This document shows, piece after piece, positions 15,201 through 37,657 of a DNA stretch of 39,276 nt (the stretch's first letter is position 1; each line of letters opens with the position of its first letter). The translations under genes and the position numbers were made by a program. This stretch comes from an uncultured Bacteroidota bacterium. Lineage in GTDB: Bacteria; Bacteroidota; Bacteroidia; Flavobacteriales; Flavobacteriaceae. The notes beneath the pieces were generated by a model. The model was given only the letters and a program-made list of their open reading frames with translations. It was not told the DNA's origin and did not search any database. Location: contig CABYIO010000010.1 of assembly GCA_902519075.1 (NCBI GenBank), forward strand, positions 1-39,276, written 5' to 3'.

Positions 15201-15236
15201 GTAAATCAATTTCTTTTGACTAATTTGTTATTTCTT

Positions 15237-16361
15237 ATGGATTTTCATAAAAAATATCATATCTCGATCGGGTCTAATATTGGAGATAGATTGAATAATA
15301 TTCAGTCATCAATTGACTTAATTCATTCTAGAATTGCATCAATTCTTACAATTTCATCAATATATGAAACCGAGTCAATTGGATTTAAAGGTGATGATTT
15401 TTTTAATCTATGCGCATCGTTTAATTCTTTCAAATCTCCTTATCATATAATGAATGAGTTGCTTGAAATTGAAACTATTTTAGGAAGGAATAGAAGCAAA
15501 GAAAAAAAATATGTTTCTAGAATTATTGATATTGATATTTTATTAGTTGAGGATACGGTGATTAATTCAGAGGAATTAAAAATACCTCATCTAGAAATTT
15601 GTAACAGAAAATTTGTTTTGGAACCATTATTAGAAATTGATCCAAATTTAATTCATCCTATTAGTAAAATTTCATTTAAAGAAATTTTCACCTCTTTTAA
15701 ATCTAATCAAAAAGTTGAAAAAAAAGATTTATTTCTTAAAAATCCAGCACATTTAATTAACATAACAAATTATAATTATATAGCGATTGAGGGCAATATA
15801 GGTTCAGGAAAAACCAGCTTATCCAAATTAATATCAAGTGATTTTAATACAAAATTGATGCTTGAAAGATTTATTGACAATCCATTTTTAGCTAAATTTT
15901 ATGAGAACCCTAAAGATTTTTCCTTTAAGTTAGAGATGTCTTTTTTAGCTGACAGATATCAGCAAACAAGTGAAGATTTATCACAATTAAATTTTTTTAG
16001 TCAAAATATTATAAGTGATTATGATATCCATAAGTCATTGATTTTCTCAAAAATTAATTTAAACTCTGATGAATATAATTTATACAGGAAATTATTTTAT
16101 TCATTATATAGGAGTATTGTTAAACCTGATTTGATTATTTTTTTAAATCAAACAATTGAAAATCTGAAAACAAATATTAAAAAAAGAGGCAGAGATTATG
16201 AATCGACAATTTCTGCAGATTATTTAAAAAATATTAATCAGAGTTATTCTGAATTTTTTAAATCCAGACCAGATTTAAATGTAAAATTTATAGATGTATC
16301 TGAAATTGATTTTGTAAAAAATAGATTGGATTATTTATCCATCATAAATGGAATCAATTAG
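15237..16361 (+). CDS. folK: FolK (HPPK)-deoxynucleoside kinase fusion protein
   Basis: A two-domain protein of 374 residues. Residues 1-155 are 6-hydroxymethyl-7,8-dihydropterin pyrophosphokinase of folate synthesis: HISIGSNIGDR, the YETESIG turn, and SRIIDIDILL with Mg-binding Asp98/Asp100. Residues about 180-374 are a deoxynucleoside kinase-like domain with P-loop GNIGSGKT (186-193), a candidate catalytic Glu210 and lid KKRGRDYE. The DR[S/T] motif of the kinase is replaced by DYD (261-263). I use the ATG at 15237; an in-frame TTG at 15216 is possible. Such fusions occur in other Bacteroidota as far as I recall. It converges on the methyltransferase gene, overlapping it by 8 bases. Confidence 0.92.
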   Translation: MDFHKKYHISIGSNIGDRLNNIQSSIDLIHSRIASILTISSIYETESIGFKGDDFFNLCASFNSFKSPYHIMNELLEIETILGRNRSKEKKYVSRIIDIDILLVEDTVINSEELKIPHLEICNRKFVLEPLLEIDPNLIHPISKISFKEIFTSFKSNQKVEKKDLFLKNPAHLINITNYNYIAIEGNIGSGKTSLSKLISSDFNTKLMLERFIDNPFLAKFYENPKDFSFKLEMSFLADRYQQTSEDLSQLNFFSQNIISDYDIHKSLIFSKINLNSDEYNLYRKLFYSLYRSIVKPDLIIFLNQTIENLKTNIKKRGRDYESTISADYLKNINQSYSEFFKSRPDLNVKFIDVSEIDFVKNRLDYLSIINGIN

Positions 16362-27196: not shown

Positions 27197-28079
27197 TTTC
27201 CAAATTTAATGAACTTGAATTTATATCTCCATTAATTTTTCTTACCAATCCTTGTAGAACACGACCAGGTCCAACCTCAATAAACTCTTTAGCTCCATCT
27301 TGAACCATTTTATTTATTGACTGAGTCCATTTTACAGGACTAGTTAGCTGAGATATTAAATTTTCTTTTATTTCAATTTCTGAAGAGTAGGGAAGGCCAC
27401 TAACGTTTTGATATATTGGACATATTGGATCAGAAAAAATAGTTTCATTTATAGCATTTTCAAGTTCTCTTTTTGCATCCTCCATAAGCGGAGAATGAAA
27501 TGCACCCCCGACAGGCAAAACTAATGCACGTCGAACACCAATTTCTTTTAATTTTTCGCATGCTAATTCTATTGCATTTAATTCACCTGAAATAACCAAT
27601 TGGCCTGGGCAATTATAATTTGCAGCCACGACAGTGCCATTGACTTCACTACACACATTTTCAACGAGTTTATCTTCCAACCCTAAAACAGCCGCCATAG
27701 TTCCAGGATTATTTTCACAAGCTTTTTGCATTGCATTTGCTCTAATTGAAACTAACTTTAGTCCGTCCTCAAATGAAATAGATTTATTTATAACAAGAGC
27801 TGAGAATTCGCCTAATGAGTGGCCTGCAACCATTGCAGGTAAGATTTCATTTTCTTTACTCATTGCCAATATTACAGAATGTAAAAAAATCGCTGGTTGA
27901 GTGACCGAGGTTTGTTTTAAGTCTTCAGTTGATCCATTAAACATCACATCACTTATTTTAAAACCTAAAATTTCGTTAGCATTATTAAAAAGTTCATAGG
28001 CAGTCTTGGAATTTTCAAATAAATCCTTACCCATTCCTGAAAATTGTGCTCCTTGACCTGGAAAAATATATGCTTTCAT
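27186..28079 (-). CDS. fabD: Malonyl-CoA:ACP transacylase FabD
   Basis: Transfers malonyl from CoA to acyl carrier protein for fatty-acid synthesis. The 297 residues show the opening FPGQGAQFSGMG, nucleophile Ser88 in GHSLGE, and catalytic His195 in GGAFHSPLM. The start codon overlaps the folA stop by one base (TAATG). No other fab gene lies beside it. Confidence 0.97.
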   Translation of the reverse strand: MKAYIFPGQGAQFSGMGKDLFENSKTAYELFNNANEILGFKISDVMFNGSTEDLKQTSVTQPAIFLHSVILAMSKENEILPAMVAGHSLGEFSALVINKSISFEDGLKLVSIRANAMQKACENNPGTMAAVLGLEDKLVENVCSEVNGTVVAANYNCPGQLVISGELNAIELACEKLKEIGVRRALVLPVGGAFHSPLMEDAKRELENAINETIFSDPICPIYQNVSGLPYSSEIEIKENLISQLTSPVKWTQSINKMVQDGAKEFIEVGPGRVLQGLVRKINGDINSSSLNLENVG

Positions 28080-28579
28080 TACTTAATTTTTAAATATGTT
28101 TTATATGTAAACGAATATTTATGGCGTTCATCCTTTTTATGGTTTTCTTCATTAATTAGTTTCCATTCGTTTTTGTTAATTTTTGGAAAGAAAGTATCCG
28201 CTTCGAACTCCTCATGAACCCTTGTTAATTCGATAATATCACTATATTTCATGGCTAGATTATAAATTTGCCCACCACCAATAACATATGGATTTTCATC
28301 TTCATTAGTTGCTTTTACTGCATCCTCAAAATTATTTACAACAATAACTTCGTCAGGAAAATAGCTGTAGAATTTTTTTGAAATAACAATATGTTTTCTA
28401 TTGGGTAATAATCCAGGAAATGAATCAAATGTTTTTCTACCCATAATTATGCAATGACCTGAGGTAAGTCTTTTAAACCTTTTTAGGTCATCTGGCAAAC
28501 TCCAGATTAGATCATTGTTTTTTCCAATAGCATCATTTTCAGCTGCAGCAACAATAATGGTTATAGTTTTTTTTATCAT
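28079..28579 (-). CDS. folA: Dihydrofolate reductase
   Basis: Reduces dihydrofolate to tetrahydrofolate with NADPH, recycling the folate oxidised by ThyA. The 166 residues include IVAAAENDAIGKNNDLIWSLPDDL with active-site Asp31, the NADPH-binding MGRKTFDSF, and the GGGQIYN motif. It follows thyA by 8 bases and overlaps fabD by one base. Confidence 0.97.
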   Translation of the reverse strand: MIKKTITIIVAAAENDAIGKNNDLIWSLPDDLKRFKRLTSGHCIIMGRKTFDSFPGLLPNRKHIVISKKFYSYFPDEVIVVNNFEDAVKATNEDENPYVIGGGQIYNLAMKYSDIIELTRVHEEFEADTFFPKINKNEWKLINEENHKKDERHKYSFTYKTYLKIK

Positions 28580-28587
28580 GAGATTGA

Positions 28588-29412
28588 TTAAACTGCAACT
28601 TTTCCTTTAATGTGAGGATGAGGATTATAATCTTCTAATACAAAATGTTCAAATTTAAAATCAAAAATACTTTTAACCTCTTTATTTATTTTAATTGTTG
28701 GTAGCTTTCTTGGTTCTCTAGTTAGTTGTAATTTCATCTGATCAAAGTGATTACTGTAAATATGAGCATCTCCAAAAGTATGAATAAAATCACCCAATTT
28801 TAAATTACACACTTGAGCTATCATTATGGTTAAAAGCGAATATGATGCGATATTAAAAGGTACTCCCAAAAAAATATCTGCACTTCTTTGATATAATTGA
28901 CAAGAAAGTTTACCGTCAATTACATGAAATTGAAAAAATGCATGACATGGAGGTAATGCAGCCTTTCCATTAGCAACATTGGTTTCAAAAGATTTTGAAG
29001 TATCAGGTAAAACAGATGGATTCCAGGCTGAAATAAGATGCCTTCTGCTACTTGGATTGTTTTTTAAATCATTGATTAAGTTTGATATTTGATCAATTCC
29101 ATCGTTGTTCCAATTTCTCCACTGAAAACCGTAAACAGGACCAAGATCACCATTTGAATCTGCCCAGGCATCCCATATTTTTACTCCATTTTCTTGTAAA
29201 TATTTAATATTTGTATCACCTTTTAAAAACCATAGTAATTCATAAATTATTGATTTAAGATGAAGTTTTTTTGTTGTTACCATTGGAAAACCATCATCTA
29301 AATTAAATCTCATTTGATAGCCGAAAACACTTTTAGTGCCAGTTCCGGTTCTGTCTTCCTTTAGTTCTCCATTATCAAGAACGTGTTTAACTAAGTCTAA
29401 ATATTGTCTCAT
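28588..29412 (-). CDS. thyA: Thymidylate synthase ThyA
   Basis: Makes dTMP from dUMP using methylene-tetrahydrofolate. The 274 residues carry Arg21 in EDRTGTGT, catalytic Cys156 in [15 protein letters not shown], the [17 protein letters not shown] block and the C-terminal KGKVAV. It is the upstream partner of folA, giving a complete thymidylate cycle. It lies 71 bases after nupC. Confidence 0.98.
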
Positions 29413-29483
29413 AAAATTCAGTTAGTAAAAATAATTAATAGTGATAATCTTAATTAATAAGAAAAGTAAAAGTTATTAACTTT

Positions 29484-30887
29484 TTAGCCAATAATCATAC
29501 CTGCAATTGTTGCTGATAAAAGGGATGCTAAAGTACCTCCAATTAAAGCTTTAAATCCAAATTTTGAAAGATTTTTTCTTTGTTTTGGTTCAAGAGCACC
29601 TATTCCTCCTATTTGGATTCCGATTGATGCAAAATTTGCAAAACCGCAAAGCATATAAGTAGCTATGATTATTGATTTTTGATAATTTAAATGAATCACA
29701 TTTGCAGCATCTTTTAAATCGGACAATTGGATGTATCCTATAAATTCACTAGCTGCTAATTTTATACCTAATAGTTGACCCATCAAAGTAATATCTTCTT
29801 TCGCAACACCTATCAACCACATAACTGGAGCAAAAATATATCCTAATATAAGCTCTAGTGATAATTCGGAGTATACAGTTTTATCGCTAATCCAAGCGTT
29901 TAAATTTGTTATCTCACCAAAGCCGCTTAGTATATAATTAATTAAAGCTATAAAGGCGATAAATACTAGGAGCATAGCTGCGATATTAGCTGCTAATTTT
30001 AATCCTTCCGAAGTTCCGATAGAAATAGCATCTAAAAAATTAGAGCCTATCTTGTCTTGGGACACTTCAACATTTGAATCAATTTTTTCAGTTTCTGGAT
30101 AAAGAATTTTAGAAATCACAATTGCACCAGGTGCAGCCATTACTGATGCTGTTAAAAGATGTTTTGCATAATAGACCTTAAGTTCGGGGTCTTCTCCTCC
30201 AAGGAAACCAATGTAAGCAGCAAGAACACCTCCTGCAACTGTAGCCATTCCCCCAATCATAACCAGCAAAATTTCAGATTTTGACATTTTTTCTAAGTAT
30301 GCTTTAATCATTAGTGGAGATTCGGTTTGACCAAGAAATATATTTCCTGCAACACTTAAACTTTCAGGCCCAGAAACACCAAGAAGTTTAGATAATAGTA
30401 AAGCCATCACTCTCACTATTTTTTGTATAATCCCAAGATAAAATAAAATGGATGTTAATGCTGCAAAGAAAATCACAGTAGGTAAAATGGAAAAAATAAA
30501 CACATTTCCAAAATTTTCTACACTCACTAAATCCCCAAATAAAAATTTGGTACCCTCCATTGTAAAATCAAGAATTTTAACAAAAACCTTTCCTGCACTT
30601 TCAAATATCATCTTTACCCAAGAAATTTTAAGAACCCCAACTGCAAGAATTAATTGAAGTATTAAGCCAGTTGATGCAGTTTTCCAGTTGATTGCTTTTT
30701 TATTATTTGAAAGAAGATAAGTTGTTAAAATTAGAAATGATATTCCCAAGAGACCTCTCAGAAATCCTTCAAGGGTAAAGCCATTACTTGGAATAATATT
30801 TTGATCTTGTGCAAAAACAAAACTATTTGCAGTAATAAAAAATAAGGTTGTTAAAAGTATCTTTTTTTTATCTGTTAGAAATTTCAT
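29484..30887 (-). CDS. nupC: Concentrative nucleoside transporter (NupC/CNT family)
   Basis: Inner-membrane symporter importing nucleosides with H+ or Na+. I choose the ATG at 30887 (467 residues); the frame opens earlier at 30932, but that would push into the upstream gene. The N-terminus looks like a cleavable signal (hydrophobic stretch, SFVFAQ), then about ten membrane helices. CNT motifs include FLGQTESPLMIKAYL, MIGGMATVAGGVLAAY, PGAIVISKILYPE, and the C-terminal gate GFANFASIGIQIGGIGAL. Placement before thyA-folA suggests nucleoside salvage linked to dTMP supply. It overlaps the nuclease gene by 20 bases. Confidence 0.93.
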   Translation of the reverse strand: MKFLTDKKKILLTTLFFITANSFVFAQDQNIIPSNGFTLEGFLRGLLGISFLILTTYLLSNNKKAINWKTASTGLILQLILAVGVLKISWVKMIFESAGKVFVKILDFTMEGTKFLFGDLVSVENFGNVFIFSILPTVIFFAALTSILFYLGIIQKIVRVMALLLSKLLGVSGPESLSVAGNIFLGQTESPLMIKAYLEKMSKSEILLVMIGGMATVAGGVLAAYIGFLGGEDPELKVYYAKHLLTASVMAAPGAIVISKILYPETEKIDSNVEVSQDKIGSNFLDAISIGTSEGLKLAANIAAMLLVFIAFIALINYILSGFGEITNLNAWISDKTVYSELSLELILGYIFAPVMWLIGVAKEDITLMGQLLGIKLAASEFIGYIQLSDLKDAANVIHLNYQKSIIIATYMLCGFANFASIGIQIGGIGALEPKQRKNLSKFGFKALIGGTLASLLSATIAGMIIG

Positions 30888-31464
30888 CCCTGATTTTTGC
30901 AGCTGATTCATAATTTTCATTTTGAACAGCAATTTTTAATAATTCTTCTAATTCTTTGGTTGTTTTCTCTTTGAGGTCACTATTTTCAACTTCTGAATTT
31001 TCATCTGAAAATAACTCTTTAAGCAATGACTTTTCATCAATTTCTTTTTCTACTTTAATCACGACTCCTGCTTTTTCAAGAATGTTTTCATAAGTGTAAA
31101 TTGGGGCTTCAAATCTTATTGCCAAAGCAATAGCATCACTGGATCTGGAGTCGATTATTTCTTCAATTCCGTCTCTTTCACAAATAACGCTAGAGTAAAA
31201 CACACCATCAACGAGCTTGTGAATAATTACTTGTTTTATTTTAATATCAAATCTAACACAAAAATTTTTGAACAAATCGTGAGTCAAAGGTCTCGGAGGT
31301 TTAATTTCCTTTTCAATAGCAATGGCAATAGATTGCGCCTCGTTTGTACCAATTACAATTGGCAACTTTCTCTCACCTTCTATTTCGCTCAAAATTAACG
31401 CATATGCACCATTCTGAGTTTGGCTGTAGGAAATACCGTTAATTAGTAGTTCAATAAGATTCAT
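30868..31464 (-). CDS. Bifunctional nuclease (DUF151/BFN) family protein with C-terminal UVR motif
   Basis: A 198-residue protein. Residues 1-130 are a BFN/DUF151 domain (YALILSEIEGERKLPIVIGTNEAQSIA; LTHDLF; SRSSDAIALAIRF). A Glu-rich linker follows, and the end (about 165-198) is a UvrB/UvrC-type UVR motif (LEELLKIAVQNENYESAAKIRDEI). The family has members with DNase/RNase activity; the UVR helix hairpin mediates protein contacts in UvrBC and Clp partners. The role in this organism is unknown. It lies 42 bases after etfA. Confidence 0.9.
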   Translation of the reverse strand: MNLIELLINGISYSQTQNGAYALILSEIEGERKLPIVIGTNEAQSIAIAIEKEIKPPRPLTHDLFKNFCVRFDIKIKQVIIHKLVDGVFYSSVICERDGIEEIIDSRSSDAIALAIRFEAPIYTYENILEKAGVVIKVEKEIDEKSLLKELFSDENSEVENSDLKEKTTKELEELLKIAVQNENYESAAKIRDEISNR

Positions 31465-34393: not shown

Positions 34394-37015
34394 ATGGATT
34401 CAATGATGATTTACATGCCAATAATGATGTCAGCATTAGGCCTTGCTTATGTTTTTGTAAGAAGGTCTTGGGTGATGAAACAAGATGCAGGTGACGGAAA
34501 AATGAAAGAGATTTCTGATCATATATACGAAGGTGCACTAGCCTTTTTAAATGCTGAGTATCGTTTATTAACCGTATTTGTATTAGTGGTAAGTGCAGTT
34601 CTTGCAGGTATATCATTTATTGTACCTACAACTCATATTTTGATTGTGGTATCATTTATTTTTGGAGCATTTTTCTCTGCTTATGCTGGTAACATAGGAA
34701 TGAAGATTGCTACCAAAACAAATGTTAGAACTACACAAGCTGCTAAAACATCTTTACCAAATGCACTTAAAATTTCATTTGCTGGTGGAACAGTTATGGG
34801 ATTAGGAGTAGCAGGTTTAGCTGTATTAGGTCTTACAGCTTTTTTTATCATATTCTTTAACCATTTTATGGGTGGTGTTTGGGCTGATACTGATTATGGA
34901 TCTGCCAGTGATACTATGACTATAGTTTTAGAAACTCTTGCTGGATTTTCATTAGGAGCAGAATCAATTGCTTTATTTGCAAGAGTTGGTGGTGGAATTT
35001 ACACAAAAGCGGCTGATGTAGGTGCTGATTTAGTTGGAAAAGTTGAAGCTGGAATCCCAGAAGATGACCCACGAAATCCAGCTACAATTGCTGATAATGT
35101 AGGAGATAATGTAGGAGATGTTGCTGGTATGGGAGCTGACTTATTTGGTTCATATGTAGCAACGGTTCTCGCTGCTATGGTTCTTGGAAATTATGTTATT
35201 ATCGATATGGGAGGCTCTATTGACGATACTTTTGGGGGAATTGGACCAATTTTATTACCAATGGCAATAGCTGGACTAGGTATTATTATTTCTCTGATAG
35301 GTACACTATTTGTAAAAATAAATTCAAATGATGCAAAGGAGGCTGAAGTTATGGGTGCTCTTAATAAAGGAAATGGGATTTCTATCCTACTGGTTGCAAT
35401 ATCCTGTTTTTTCCTAGTTGATTATATGCTTCCCGAAACTTTAAATATGGAGTTTTTTGGTGAAGGATTAAAAGATATAGCTTCAATTAATGTATTCTAC
35501 GCTACATTAACAGGTTTAATTGTTGGCTGGTTTATTTCTGCAATTACTGAATATTACACAGGGCTGGGTAAAAAACCTGTTCTTGAAATCGTTCAAAAAT
35601 CAAGTACTGGTGCAGCTACTAATATTATCGCAGGTTTAGCAACCGGTATGATTTCAACTTTCGGATCAGTAATCTTATTTGCAGCTGCAATATGGGCAGC
35701 ATATGCTTTTGCTGGTTTTTACGGTGTAGCTTTATCTGCTTCAGCCATGATGGCAACAACCGGAATGCAATTAGCAATTGATGCCTTTGGCCCAATATCC
35801 GACAATGCAGGTGGGGTAGCCGAAATGAGTGGACAAGACCCTATTGTAAGGGAAAGAACAGATATATTAGATTCTGTAGGAAATACTACTGCAGCTACTG
35901 GAAAAGGTTTTGCAATTGCTTCTGCAGCTCTTACTTCGCTTGCTTTATTTGCAGCTTATGTAACATTTACCGGAATTGAAGGTATCAATATCTTTAAAGC
36001 TCCAGTTTTAGCAATGTTATTTATTGGAGGTATGGTTCCTGTAGTATTTTCAGCTTTAGCTATGAATGCAGTTGGAATGGCTGCTATGGAAATGGTTTAT
36101 GAGGTTAGAAGACAATTTAAAGAAATTCCTGGAATAATGAAGGGTAAGGCGAAGCCTGAATATGATAAATGTGTAGATATCTCTACCAAAGCATCTCTAA
36201 AAGAAATGATGCTTCCAGGTATTTTAACAATTGGAACCCCAATAATAATTACTGTATTACCGATGTTATTTGGACTGGATAATCAATTAATAGCTGAAAT
36301 GCTTGGTGGATATATGGCTGGAGTTACGGTTAGTGGAGTTTTATGGGCAATTTTCCAAAACAATGCTGGTGGTGCATGGGACAATGCAAAAAAATCTTTT
36401 GAGGCAGGCGTTGAAATTAACGGAGAAATGACATTCAAAGGTTCTGATGCACATAAGGCATCAGTCACTGGAGATACAGTTGGAGATCCTTTCAAAGATA
36501 CATCTGGACCATCTATGAATATTCTTATCAAACTTACATGTTTAATAGGTTTGGTAATTGCTCCGATATTAGGAGGTCATGGAACTCATGATGTTGAACA
36601 TAAATCAGTAACGTATATATACGATGCTACATACCTTGATACATTTGAAATGGGTAATGAGGATAAGGTATTAATTGTACAATCTCTGGTGAGAGATTTA
36701 ATAGCTAAAGATTACACTAAAGTTGCTGAATATCTTTCTGAAGATGTTGTTTTTAATCTTTCTGATGGTTCATTAATCAGAGGTAAGGAATCTGCCATGA
36801 AACATATTTCAGACACATATTCTGAAGTTAATATTGAAGATTATAGTGTTGCGGTTAACCTTGCAGTTACAGGAGATAATGGTGAGGAATGGGTTTTACT
36901 ATGGGATGAAGGAAATATTGTCGAATCAAACGGTAAATCAACAATTAAAAGTTGGATGGAATCTTTCCGATTTGACGGAGATAAAATTAATTTTATTAAT
37001 ATGTATTCCAAATAG
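34394..37015 (+). CDS. hppA: K+-dependent membrane pyrophosphatase (ion pump) with C-terminal NTF2/SnoaL-like domain
   Basis: Pumps H+ and/or Na+ across the inner membrane using PPi. The core (about 1-728) has some 16 helices and the catalytic motifs [11 protein letters not shown] (208-218), [19 protein letters not shown] (224-242), and [15 protein letters not shown] (693-707). Ala500 in GNTTAATG marks the K+-dependent class. Gly252 (DLFGSY) replaces the helix-6 Glu of typical Na+ pumps, while Glu190 (GAES) sits in helix 5, a pattern I recall for the H+-pumping Flavobacterium enzyme. Residues about 752-873 add a soluble NTF2-like domain ([28 protein letters not shown]), absent from ordinary family members. 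Confidence 0.96.
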
Positions 37016-37020
37016 ATAAT

Positions 37021-37053
37021 AAAAAAAAGGCCTCAATTTGAGGCCTTTTTTTT
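37021..37053. terminator. Bidirectional terminator between hppA and the deoxynucleoside kinase gene
   Basis: AAAAAAAAGGCCTC (37021-37034) pairs with GAGGCCTTTTTTTT (37040-37053) around AATTT. It serves the converging hppA and kinase genes. Confidence 0.93.
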
Positions 37054-37657
37054 ATTTCATTTTTTCATCTATCAATGAAATTATTTTTTTAAGGTCATCC
37101 TTGTTTTCAACAAAGTCTAAATCATCAATATCAACGATTAATAATTCTCCCTTGTTATAATTATGTATCCAAGCTTCATATCTTTCATTTAATCTGCTTA
37201 AATACTCAATACTTATAGAATTTTCATATTCACGTCCCCTTTTATGAATTTGAGAAACCAGATTTGGAATAGAGCTTCTAAGATATATTAATAGGTCTGG
37301 TGCAGCTACATTTTCCTCCATTAAATCAAAAAGTGATCTGTAGTTTTCAAAATCACGATTTGTCATAAGTCCCATTGCGTGCAGATTGGGTGCAAAAATA
37401 TTAGCATCCTCATAAATAGTTCTGTCTTGAATTACATTTTTACTTTTTTCATGGATTTCTTTTACTTGTCTAAATCTGCTATTTAAAAAATATATTTGAA
37501 GATTAAAACTCCATCTTTCCATTTGATTATAAAAATCATCTAGGTATGGATTTTTGACTACGTCTTCTAATTGCTTATTAAATTTATAATGTTTAGCTAG
37601 ATATTTAGTCAATGTAGTTTTTCCAGCACCAATATTTCCTGCGATTGCTATATGCAT
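37052..37657 (-). CDS. Deoxynucleoside kinase (dGK/dAK/dCK family)
   Basis: Phosphorylates salvaged deoxynucleosides with ATP in the cytoplasm. The 201 residues have P-loop GNIGAGKT (7-14), the catalytic Glu31 region (KQLEDVVKNPYLDDFY), DRT (78-80) and lid KRGREYENSI. This is the canonical motif set, in contrast to the kinase half of the FolK fusion at 15237-16361. It is one base downstream of an uncharacterised secreted protein gene and probably cotranscribed with it. The base preference cannot be read from sequence. Confidence 0.95.
   Translation of the reverse strand: MHIAIAGNIGAGKTTLTKYLAKHYKFNKQLEDVVKNPYLDDFYNQMERWSFNLQIYFLNSRFRQVKEIHEKSKNVIQDRTIYEDANIFAPNLHAMGLMTNRDFENYRSLFDLMEENVAAPDLLIYLRSSIPNLVSQIHKRGREYENSISIEYLSRLNERYEAWIHNYNKGELLIVDIDDLDFVENKDDLKKIISLIDEKMK

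What the first reader, a model, noticed from the sequence alone, without database searches (positions are those of the whole stretch)
15237..16361. FolK-deoxynucleoside kinase fusion with altered DR[S/T] motif, plus a second free kinase
The fused kinase keeps the P-loop, Glu210 and the lid but has DYD where the stand-alone kinase at 37052-37657 has DRT. The Arg of this motif contacts the substrate phosphates in the family, so the fused domain may have changed substrate, be regulatory or be inactive. Joining a folate enzyme with a nucleoside kinase links the two inputs of thymidylate synthesis; thyA and folA also lie in this window.
Basis: partly seen in the sequence, partly recalled or inferred. 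Interest (0 to 1): 0.5.

Follow-up and report, generated by a model that had tools for sequence, protein, structure and literature searches.

The report
Folate enzyme fused to deoxyguanosine-type kinase
A marine Bacteroidota genome carries one protein that joins a folate-making enzyme to a kinase that looks like the deoxyguanosine-salvage type; the odd-looking motif is the normal mark of that kinase type, and the gene pairing is old and widespread in the phylum, for a reason that is still open.

Summary
In detail: ORF 15237-16361 (+) encodes an intact FolK joined to a deoxynucleoside kinase (dNK) with Asp-Tyr where the free kinase (37052-37657, -) has Asp-Arg. Decay or mere regulation is not supported. 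DY marks an old dNK class that includes Bacillus subtilis dgk (deoxyguanosine kinase); B. subtilis dck has DR. Of 186 distinct kinase domains read, 125 of 125 DY domains have Lys at Asp+5 and 60 of 60 DR domains have Glu; one reads DC with Arg. None of 84 distinct fused domains is DR. Catalytic residues and purifying selection are kept. In the window's family 143 of 149 genera (one genome each) have the fusion: 52 by sequence read, 91 by frame length. In 41 genomes of 25 other families whose DNA I read, the kinase follows folK on the same strand in 35, is fused in 2 (a separate origin), and neither in 4; other families lack it. Best reading: bifunctional HPPK and deoxyguanosine-type kinase, possibly the dG kinase that (recalled) was not found in two flavobacteria. 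The predicted product is dGMP, so the thymidylate link is not supported. Why folK and dgk stay together is unexplained. Nothing was assayed.

The parts
15237..16361 (+). FolK-dNK fusion gene, 374 aa from ATG 15237 (TTG 15216 also opens the frame)
15261..15644 (+). FolK / HPPK domain; only HPPK match found in this (71.6% complete) assembly
15696..15779 (+). variable linker segment (residues 154-181; limits chosen by me)
   Evidence: pN/pS 0.390 in 13 close pairs, the highest of the three segments
15780..16358 (+). deoxynucleoside kinase domain, DY class (predicted deoxyguanosine-type)
15792..15815 (+). P-loop GNIGSGKT (residues 186-193)
15864..15866 (+). Glu210, catalytic-base position (role recalled), invariant in DY and DR kinases
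16017..16022 (+). Asp261-Tyr262, the DY motif replacing Asp-Arg
16032..16034 (+). Lys266, invariant in DY kinases read (Glu at the same spacing in DR kinases)
37052..37657 (-). free deoxynucleoside kinase, DR class (predicted dAK/dCK type)
29484..30932 (-). Na+-dependent nucleoside transporter (CNT/NupC type), a plausible source of deoxyribonucleosides for both kinases
28588..29412 (-). thymidylate synthase thyA
28079..28579 (-). dihydrofolate reductase folA

Best explanation
A bifunctional enzyme. The N-terminal half is a working HPPK (FolK) making 6-hydroxymethyl-dihydropterin diphosphate for folate. The C-terminal half is an active nucleoside kinase of the DY class, the class of B. subtilis Dgk, and most likely phosphorylates deoxyguanosine to dGMP. 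The free DR kinase covers deoxyadenosine/deoxycytidine and a TK1 elsewhere covers thymidine, completing a four-base salvage set fed by a nucleoside transporter. Tyr262 replaces the Arg at the end of strand beta-3; the invariant Lys266 at the start of the next helix probably takes over its positive charge. The fusion arose from an old folK-dgk neighbour pair that became one frame in the ancestor of this family; the joining itself is probably a by-product of tight co-expression rather than an allosteric device. Shown: domains, residue conservation, motif class, distribution, selection. Inferred: activity, dG specificity, role of Lys266, order of events, reason for the fusion.
For: Both domains over curated cut-offs. 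FolK catalytic residues kept and it is the only HPPK match in the assembly. Kinase: P-loop Gly/Lys, Glu and lid Arg/Glu in all 84 fused domains; in the 39 free DY domains the same except the P-loop Lys (94%, Thr 5%) and the lid Gly (66%). DY-Lys 125/125, DR-Glu 60/60, one DC-Arg, of 186 distinct domains. Tree of 105 rows: all 31 DR rows (incl. 2 dck) fall on one side of a branch with support 100/99, the other 74 rows, including Bacillota dgk, on the other. B. subtilis dgk (annotated deoxyguanosine kinase) is DY-K and dck is DR-E. Close-pair pN/pS: dGK half 0.061, FolK half 0.122, linker 0.390, free DR kinase 0.056 (13 of 136 pairs). Model pLDDT 92.2; it matches HPPK (Z 25.3) and dNK structures (Z 23.6). 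Transporter and TK1 present.
Against: I know of no assay of a Bacteroidota DY kinase; specificity rests on one characterised relative (B. subtilis Dgk) that is 36% identical and joins the tree on a long branch midway between the Bacteroidota DY kinases and the DR kinases, so orthology depends on the root. The residue after the Lys (Ser in 82 of 84 fused) differs from Asn in Bacillota dgk and Asp in 18 of 39 free DY kinases, so base preference could differ. Five of 149 genera in the family show no DY kinase match, and several other families of the order and phylum have none, so it is dispensable. Human dGK keeps the Arg motif (recalled), so DY is not required for dG kinase activity.
Confidence: 0.65

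Rival explanations
1. The fused kinase half has lost catalysis and acts as a sensor or scaffold (as the dNK-fold subunit NDUFA10 of complex I does for dGTP), tuning FolK to the purine deoxynucleotide pool.
For: NDUFA10 shows that a dNK-family protein can become a tight dGTP binder (start of the abstract of PMC9226000 seen; NDUFA10 chains match the kinase half); motif Arg is absent; folK-dgk pairing is widespread.
Against: P-loop, Glu210 and lid Arg residues invariant in fused proteins; same DY form in free-standing kinases and in B. subtilis dgk; strong purifying selection over the whole kinase half, close to that of the free DR kinase.
Confidence: 0.1
2. The DY kinase works on another substrate tied to folate or pterin metabolism rather than on deoxyguanosine, which would explain why it sits beside folK across the phylum.
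For: Same-strand folK neighbour in 35 of 41 genomes of 25 other families, plus 2 fused, and fusion in 143 of 149 genera of this family: more than a random pairing. Guanine and pterin share the 2-amino-4-oxo pyrimidine face (established chemistry).
Against: Motif class shared with B. subtilis dgk, which is not beside folK in the record read; the base-side Arg (R240 here, R70 in B. subtilis dCK) is conserved.
Confidence: 0.12
3. Active kinase but broad or dA/dC-preferring, redundant with the free DR kinase.
For: A Mycoplasma dAK phosphorylates dA, dG and dC (passages of PMC6609329); specificity in this family shifts with few residues (passages of PMC11357392).
Against: Both classes are kept side by side in nearly all genomes of the family, as dgk and dck are in Bacillus, which argues for split tasks.
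Confidence: 0.13

Closest known systems
Bacillus subtilis Dgk (YaaG), deoxyguanosine kinase
   Same: dNK family, DY..K motif, partner of a DR..E kinase (Dck) in the same genome
   Different: Not fused to FolK and not beside folK in the record read; 36% identical; Asn instead of Ser after the Lys
Free DY kinases beside folK in other Bacteroidota families
   Same: Same motif class and same folK partner, gene directly downstream
   Different: Separate, adjacent or overlapping frames instead of one
FolK fusions with pathway neighbours (DHNA-HPPK 2cg8, Francisella HPPK-DHPS, yeast Fol1)
   Same: Bifunctional enzyme with an HPPK domain
   Different: The partner there is another folate enzyme; here it is a nucleoside kinase of another pathway
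Free DR kinase of the window and B. subtilis Dck
   Same: dNK family, same catalytic frame
   Different: Asp-Arg with Glu at +5; separate side of the tree

Membership tests
HPPK / FolK (PF01288, TIGR01498) | Match over curated cut-off along the whole model | tested here: met
   (107.5 bits vs 25.7; 103.3 vs 54.1, 3-128 of 128)
HPPK / FolK (PF01288, TIGR01498) | Catalytic Arg, two metal Asp (DxD) and His kept | tested here: met
   R84, R95, D98, D100, H118, R124 invariant in 35 fused proteins; they align with the E. coli enzyme; their catalytic roles are recalled
HPPK / FolK (PF01288, TIGR01498) | HPPK activity | not testable with these tools
   no assay
dNK family (PF01712) | Match over cut-off along the model, dNK fold | tested here: met
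   134 bits vs 27, 1-198 of 203; 8puu Z 23.6, rmsd 2.0 over 191; human dGK 2ocp Z 23.0, rmsd 2.1 over 194
dNK family (PF01712) | P-loop, catalytic Glu, lid Arg residues | tested here: met
dNK family (PF01712) | Asp/Glu-Arg-Ser/Thr motif after strand beta-3 | tested here: not met
   DY instead; but B. subtilis dgk, annotated deoxyguanosine kinase, lacks it too, so the motif does not define the whole family
B. subtilis Dgk-type (DY) class | DY with Lys at +5 | tested here: met
   84/84 fused, 39/39 free DY, 2/2 Bacillota dgk
B. subtilis Dgk-type (DY) class | Falls with dgk and apart from dck/DR kinases in a tree | tested here: inconclusive
   unrooted, bootstrap not settled; dgk lies on the DY side of the 100/99 branch but on a long branch between the groups
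B. subtilis Dgk-type (DY) class | Preference for deoxyguanosine | not testable with these tools
   no assay

The most novel reading that the evidence does not exclude
FolK and the DY kinase form a real functional unit kept together across much of the phylum: the deoxyguanosine kinase half (or its dG/dGTP ligand) controls or is controlled by FolK, so that folate output, and with it de novo dTMP, is balanced against purine deoxynucleotide salvage; the same protein would be the overlooked deoxyguanosine kinase of flavobacteria.
Probability: 0.15. Interest if true: 0.7.

Novelty: new variant of a known kind. Interest (0 to 1): 0.42.

Why it matters
Flavobacteria are major consumers of algal matter in the sea (general knowledge), and dG was the most incorporated deoxynucleoside in most stations of a bay and a lake (PMC7046229, abstract and passages). 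I recall, but could not open, a 2012 study (Tinta et al., FEMS Microbiol Lett; reference seen) that tested kinases of two flavobacteria and found none that used dG. A dG-type kinase hidden behind a folK annotation would explain that gap and is directly testable. The Arg/Glu to Tyr/Lys swap also gives a simple sequence rule that separates two bacterial dNK classes, and the folK-dgk pairing is an unexplained link found in many families of the phylum.

Tried and rejected
Rejected: a chance fusion or frame error (143 of 149 genera); a decaying kinase half; a DR-containing fused relative (0 of 84 distinct domains). The joint MAFFT alignment gave another register for the motif; it was set aside because hhalign and strand positions in two models agree on the other one; the tree was built on an automatic alignment of the same kind. 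The first pN/pS run used different pairs for each segment; replaced by matched pairs. Led nowhere: ten paper searches. I saw their listings only (up to 20 rows each; one search had 1,244 hits swamped by the word 'folk'), and none of the listed titles or abstracts describes a FolK-dNK fusion or DY in dNKs; the library holds open-licence papers only. The single genome-contig scan returned 10 loci: 8 full fusions and 1 end-cut fusion of close relatives, and 1 FolK-only match, so named distant relatives (F. psychrophilum, Polaribacter) were not checked. Regular-expression scans missed some members on first pass (L121, L131, L134), read later. No DY-class chain was seen among the PDB alignments printed (5 of 36 matches, 3 of 40); the other listed chains were not inspected for the motif.

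Full report
What is there. The ORF 15216-16361 (+) is best started at ATG 15237 and encodes 374 aa. Its N-terminal part is HPPK/FolK, its last 193 residues a deoxynucleoside kinase; both pass curated cut-offs. The assembly (1.24 Mb, 69 contigs, 71.6% complete) shows two PF01712 matches, both in this window, one HPPK match and one TK1 match on another contig. The window also holds a CNT-type nucleoside transporter, thyA and folA. Close relatives are assemblies labelled uncultured Bacteroidetes or Flavobacteriaceae.

The motif. The fused kinase reads D261-Y262-D263, the free one D78-R79-T80. Whether these positions correspond had to be checked, since a joint MAFFT alignment gave another register. 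Profile-profile alignment pairs D with D and Y with R. Two AlphaFold2 models (pLDDT 92.2 and 89.8) place both pairs at the end of strand beta-3: strand 258-260 then D261-Y262, and strand 75-78 then R79. The following helix begins at K266 (Asp+5) in the fusion and at I81 (Asp+3) in the free kinase.

DY is a class signature. B. subtilis dgk, annotated deoxyguanosine kinase in a public record, reads A-D-Y-H-I-Y-K-N; its neighbour dck reads Q-D-R-S-I-Y-E-D. Of 186 distinct kinase domains read, 125 of 125 DY domains (84 fused, 39 free, 2 Bacillota dgk) have Lys at Asp+5, 60 of 60 DR domains (58 plus 2 dck) have Glu there, and one (G033) has Asp-Cys with Arg at +5. So a positive side chain at +1 has been exchanged for one at +5. 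In B. subtilis dCK the Asp that follows that Glu (D93) contacts the base, and R70 is the other base-side residue (passages of PMC11357392; positions checked). The Arg is kept in DY kinases (R240 here, invariant in 35 fused proteins); the Asp is not in most (Ser in 82 of 84 fused domains; Asp in 18 of 39 free DY domains). A tree of 105 rows, thinned from the 186, puts all 31 DR rows, dck included, on one side of a branch with support 100/99. Bootstrap had not fully settled, several branches are long, the tree is unrooted, and B. subtilis dgk joins on a long branch between the two groups, so strict orthology is not proven.

Not decaying. P-loop, Glu210 and lid residues are invariant in the fused set. 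Over 13 close genome pairs within the genus (of 136 matched pairs; pS below 0.6 in FolK, kinase half and free kinase, and above 0.05 in the kinase half), pN/pS is 0.061 for the kinase half, 0.122 for FolK, 0.390 for the linker and 0.056 for the free kinase; over all 136 pairs the order is the same (0.130, 0.309, 0.481, 0.078; synonymous sites near saturation).

Distribution in the family. In the genus, 18 of 21 genomes show the fused-type kinase (one cut by a contig end); the three without are 56-65% complete. In the family, one genome per genus, 142 of 149 have a DY-type match at E below 1e-55, 141 of them in frames of 374 aa or more and one (G464) split from folK by a single in-frame stop. 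Of the seven others, two (G472, G483) proved to be divergent fusions that still read DY..K, three have an HPPK match in a short frame, and two have no HPPK match. So 143 fused, 1 split, 5 without. I read the DNA of 53 of the 149: 52 have FolK and a DY..K kinase in one frame, one is the split G464; the other 91 of the 143 rest on frame length alone.

Distribution beyond. In the order-wide draw of 147 genomes, other families show DY-type matches in separate frames of 198-257 aa, while families f5, f6 and f15 show only DR-type scores and 31 genomes show no match at all. In the phylum-wide draw 118 of 198 genomes, 100 of them outside the family, score as DY type (E up to 6.1e-59; the next match, 4.0e-54, is the window's DR kinase), so 80 do not (class by score where not read). 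In 41 genomes of 25 other families whose DNA was read, folK lies directly upstream on the same strand in 35, is fused in 2 (both in family f44), and is not so placed in 4, one of which (G216) seems to have folK next door in divergent orientation. These 41 were not a random draw: they are best-scoring loci plus ones I picked for long frames and for new families, and none lacks the DY kinase by construction. Pfam confirms HPPK plus dNK in both f44 proteins; in the tree they sit within another lineage, so fusion most likely happened at least twice.

Reading. FolK half: HPPK by sequence and fold (E. coli HPPK Z 25.3). Kinase half: by conserved residues an active member of the dNK family, of the Dgk motif class, so dG is the likeliest substrate. 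Bacillus keeps the same pair, dgk (DY) and dck (DR). The paper that characterised them (Andersen and Neuhard 2001) was seen only as a reference and could not be opened; its content is recalled. Why folK and dgk stay side by side is not explained by the pathways. Translation coupling or shared regulation is the cheap answer; a regulatory link between folate and purine deoxynucleotides is the bold one.

The first fits, in the sense that DY and DR mark different enzymes rather than a mutated one. The other two have no support here. The thymidylate link does not follow, since the predicted product is dGMP.

Literature. Ten searches of the open-licence library (listings seen) showed no paper describing the fusion. 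PMC7046229 (abstract and passages) reports dG as the most incorporated deoxynucleoside in most stations of a bay and a lake, and cites Tinta et al. 2012, which I could not open; that its tested flavobacterial kinases did not use dG is recalled.

Noticed in passing
window 34394-37015 (+): The H+-pyrophosphatase ends with about 150 residues beyond the Pfam domain (which stops at 722 of 873) that match no Pfam family at 1e-4; the tail looks like a small NTF2/SnoaL-type domain by eye.
   Followed up: partly
window 28079-31464 (-): A bifunctional-nuclease-domain protein with a UVR motif overlaps the start of the nucleoside transporter frame, followed by thyA and folA: a possible nucleic-acid scavenging and dTMP cluster.
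   Followed up: no
L194 (G173), 741-aa frame: In family f44 one FolK-dNK fusion has a further open stretch of about 330 residues in front with no Pfam match; it may be an upstream open frame rather than protein.
   Followed up: no
L151 (G033): One free folK-linked kinase reads Asp-Cys with Arg at +5, an intermediate-looking form of the motif.
   Followed up: no
L147, L148, L149, L150, L152: A second dNK frame (DR type where read) lies 5-7 kb from the folK-dgk pair, beside what looks by eye like the H+-pyrophosphatase gene in most of them; in the window the same two genes are 21 kb from the fusion.
   Followed up: partly
L072 (NZ_AP028966.1): A B. subtilis 'plasmid' of 20 kb carries the dgk-dck-serS region, which is chromosomal in the type strain as I recall.
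   Followed up: no
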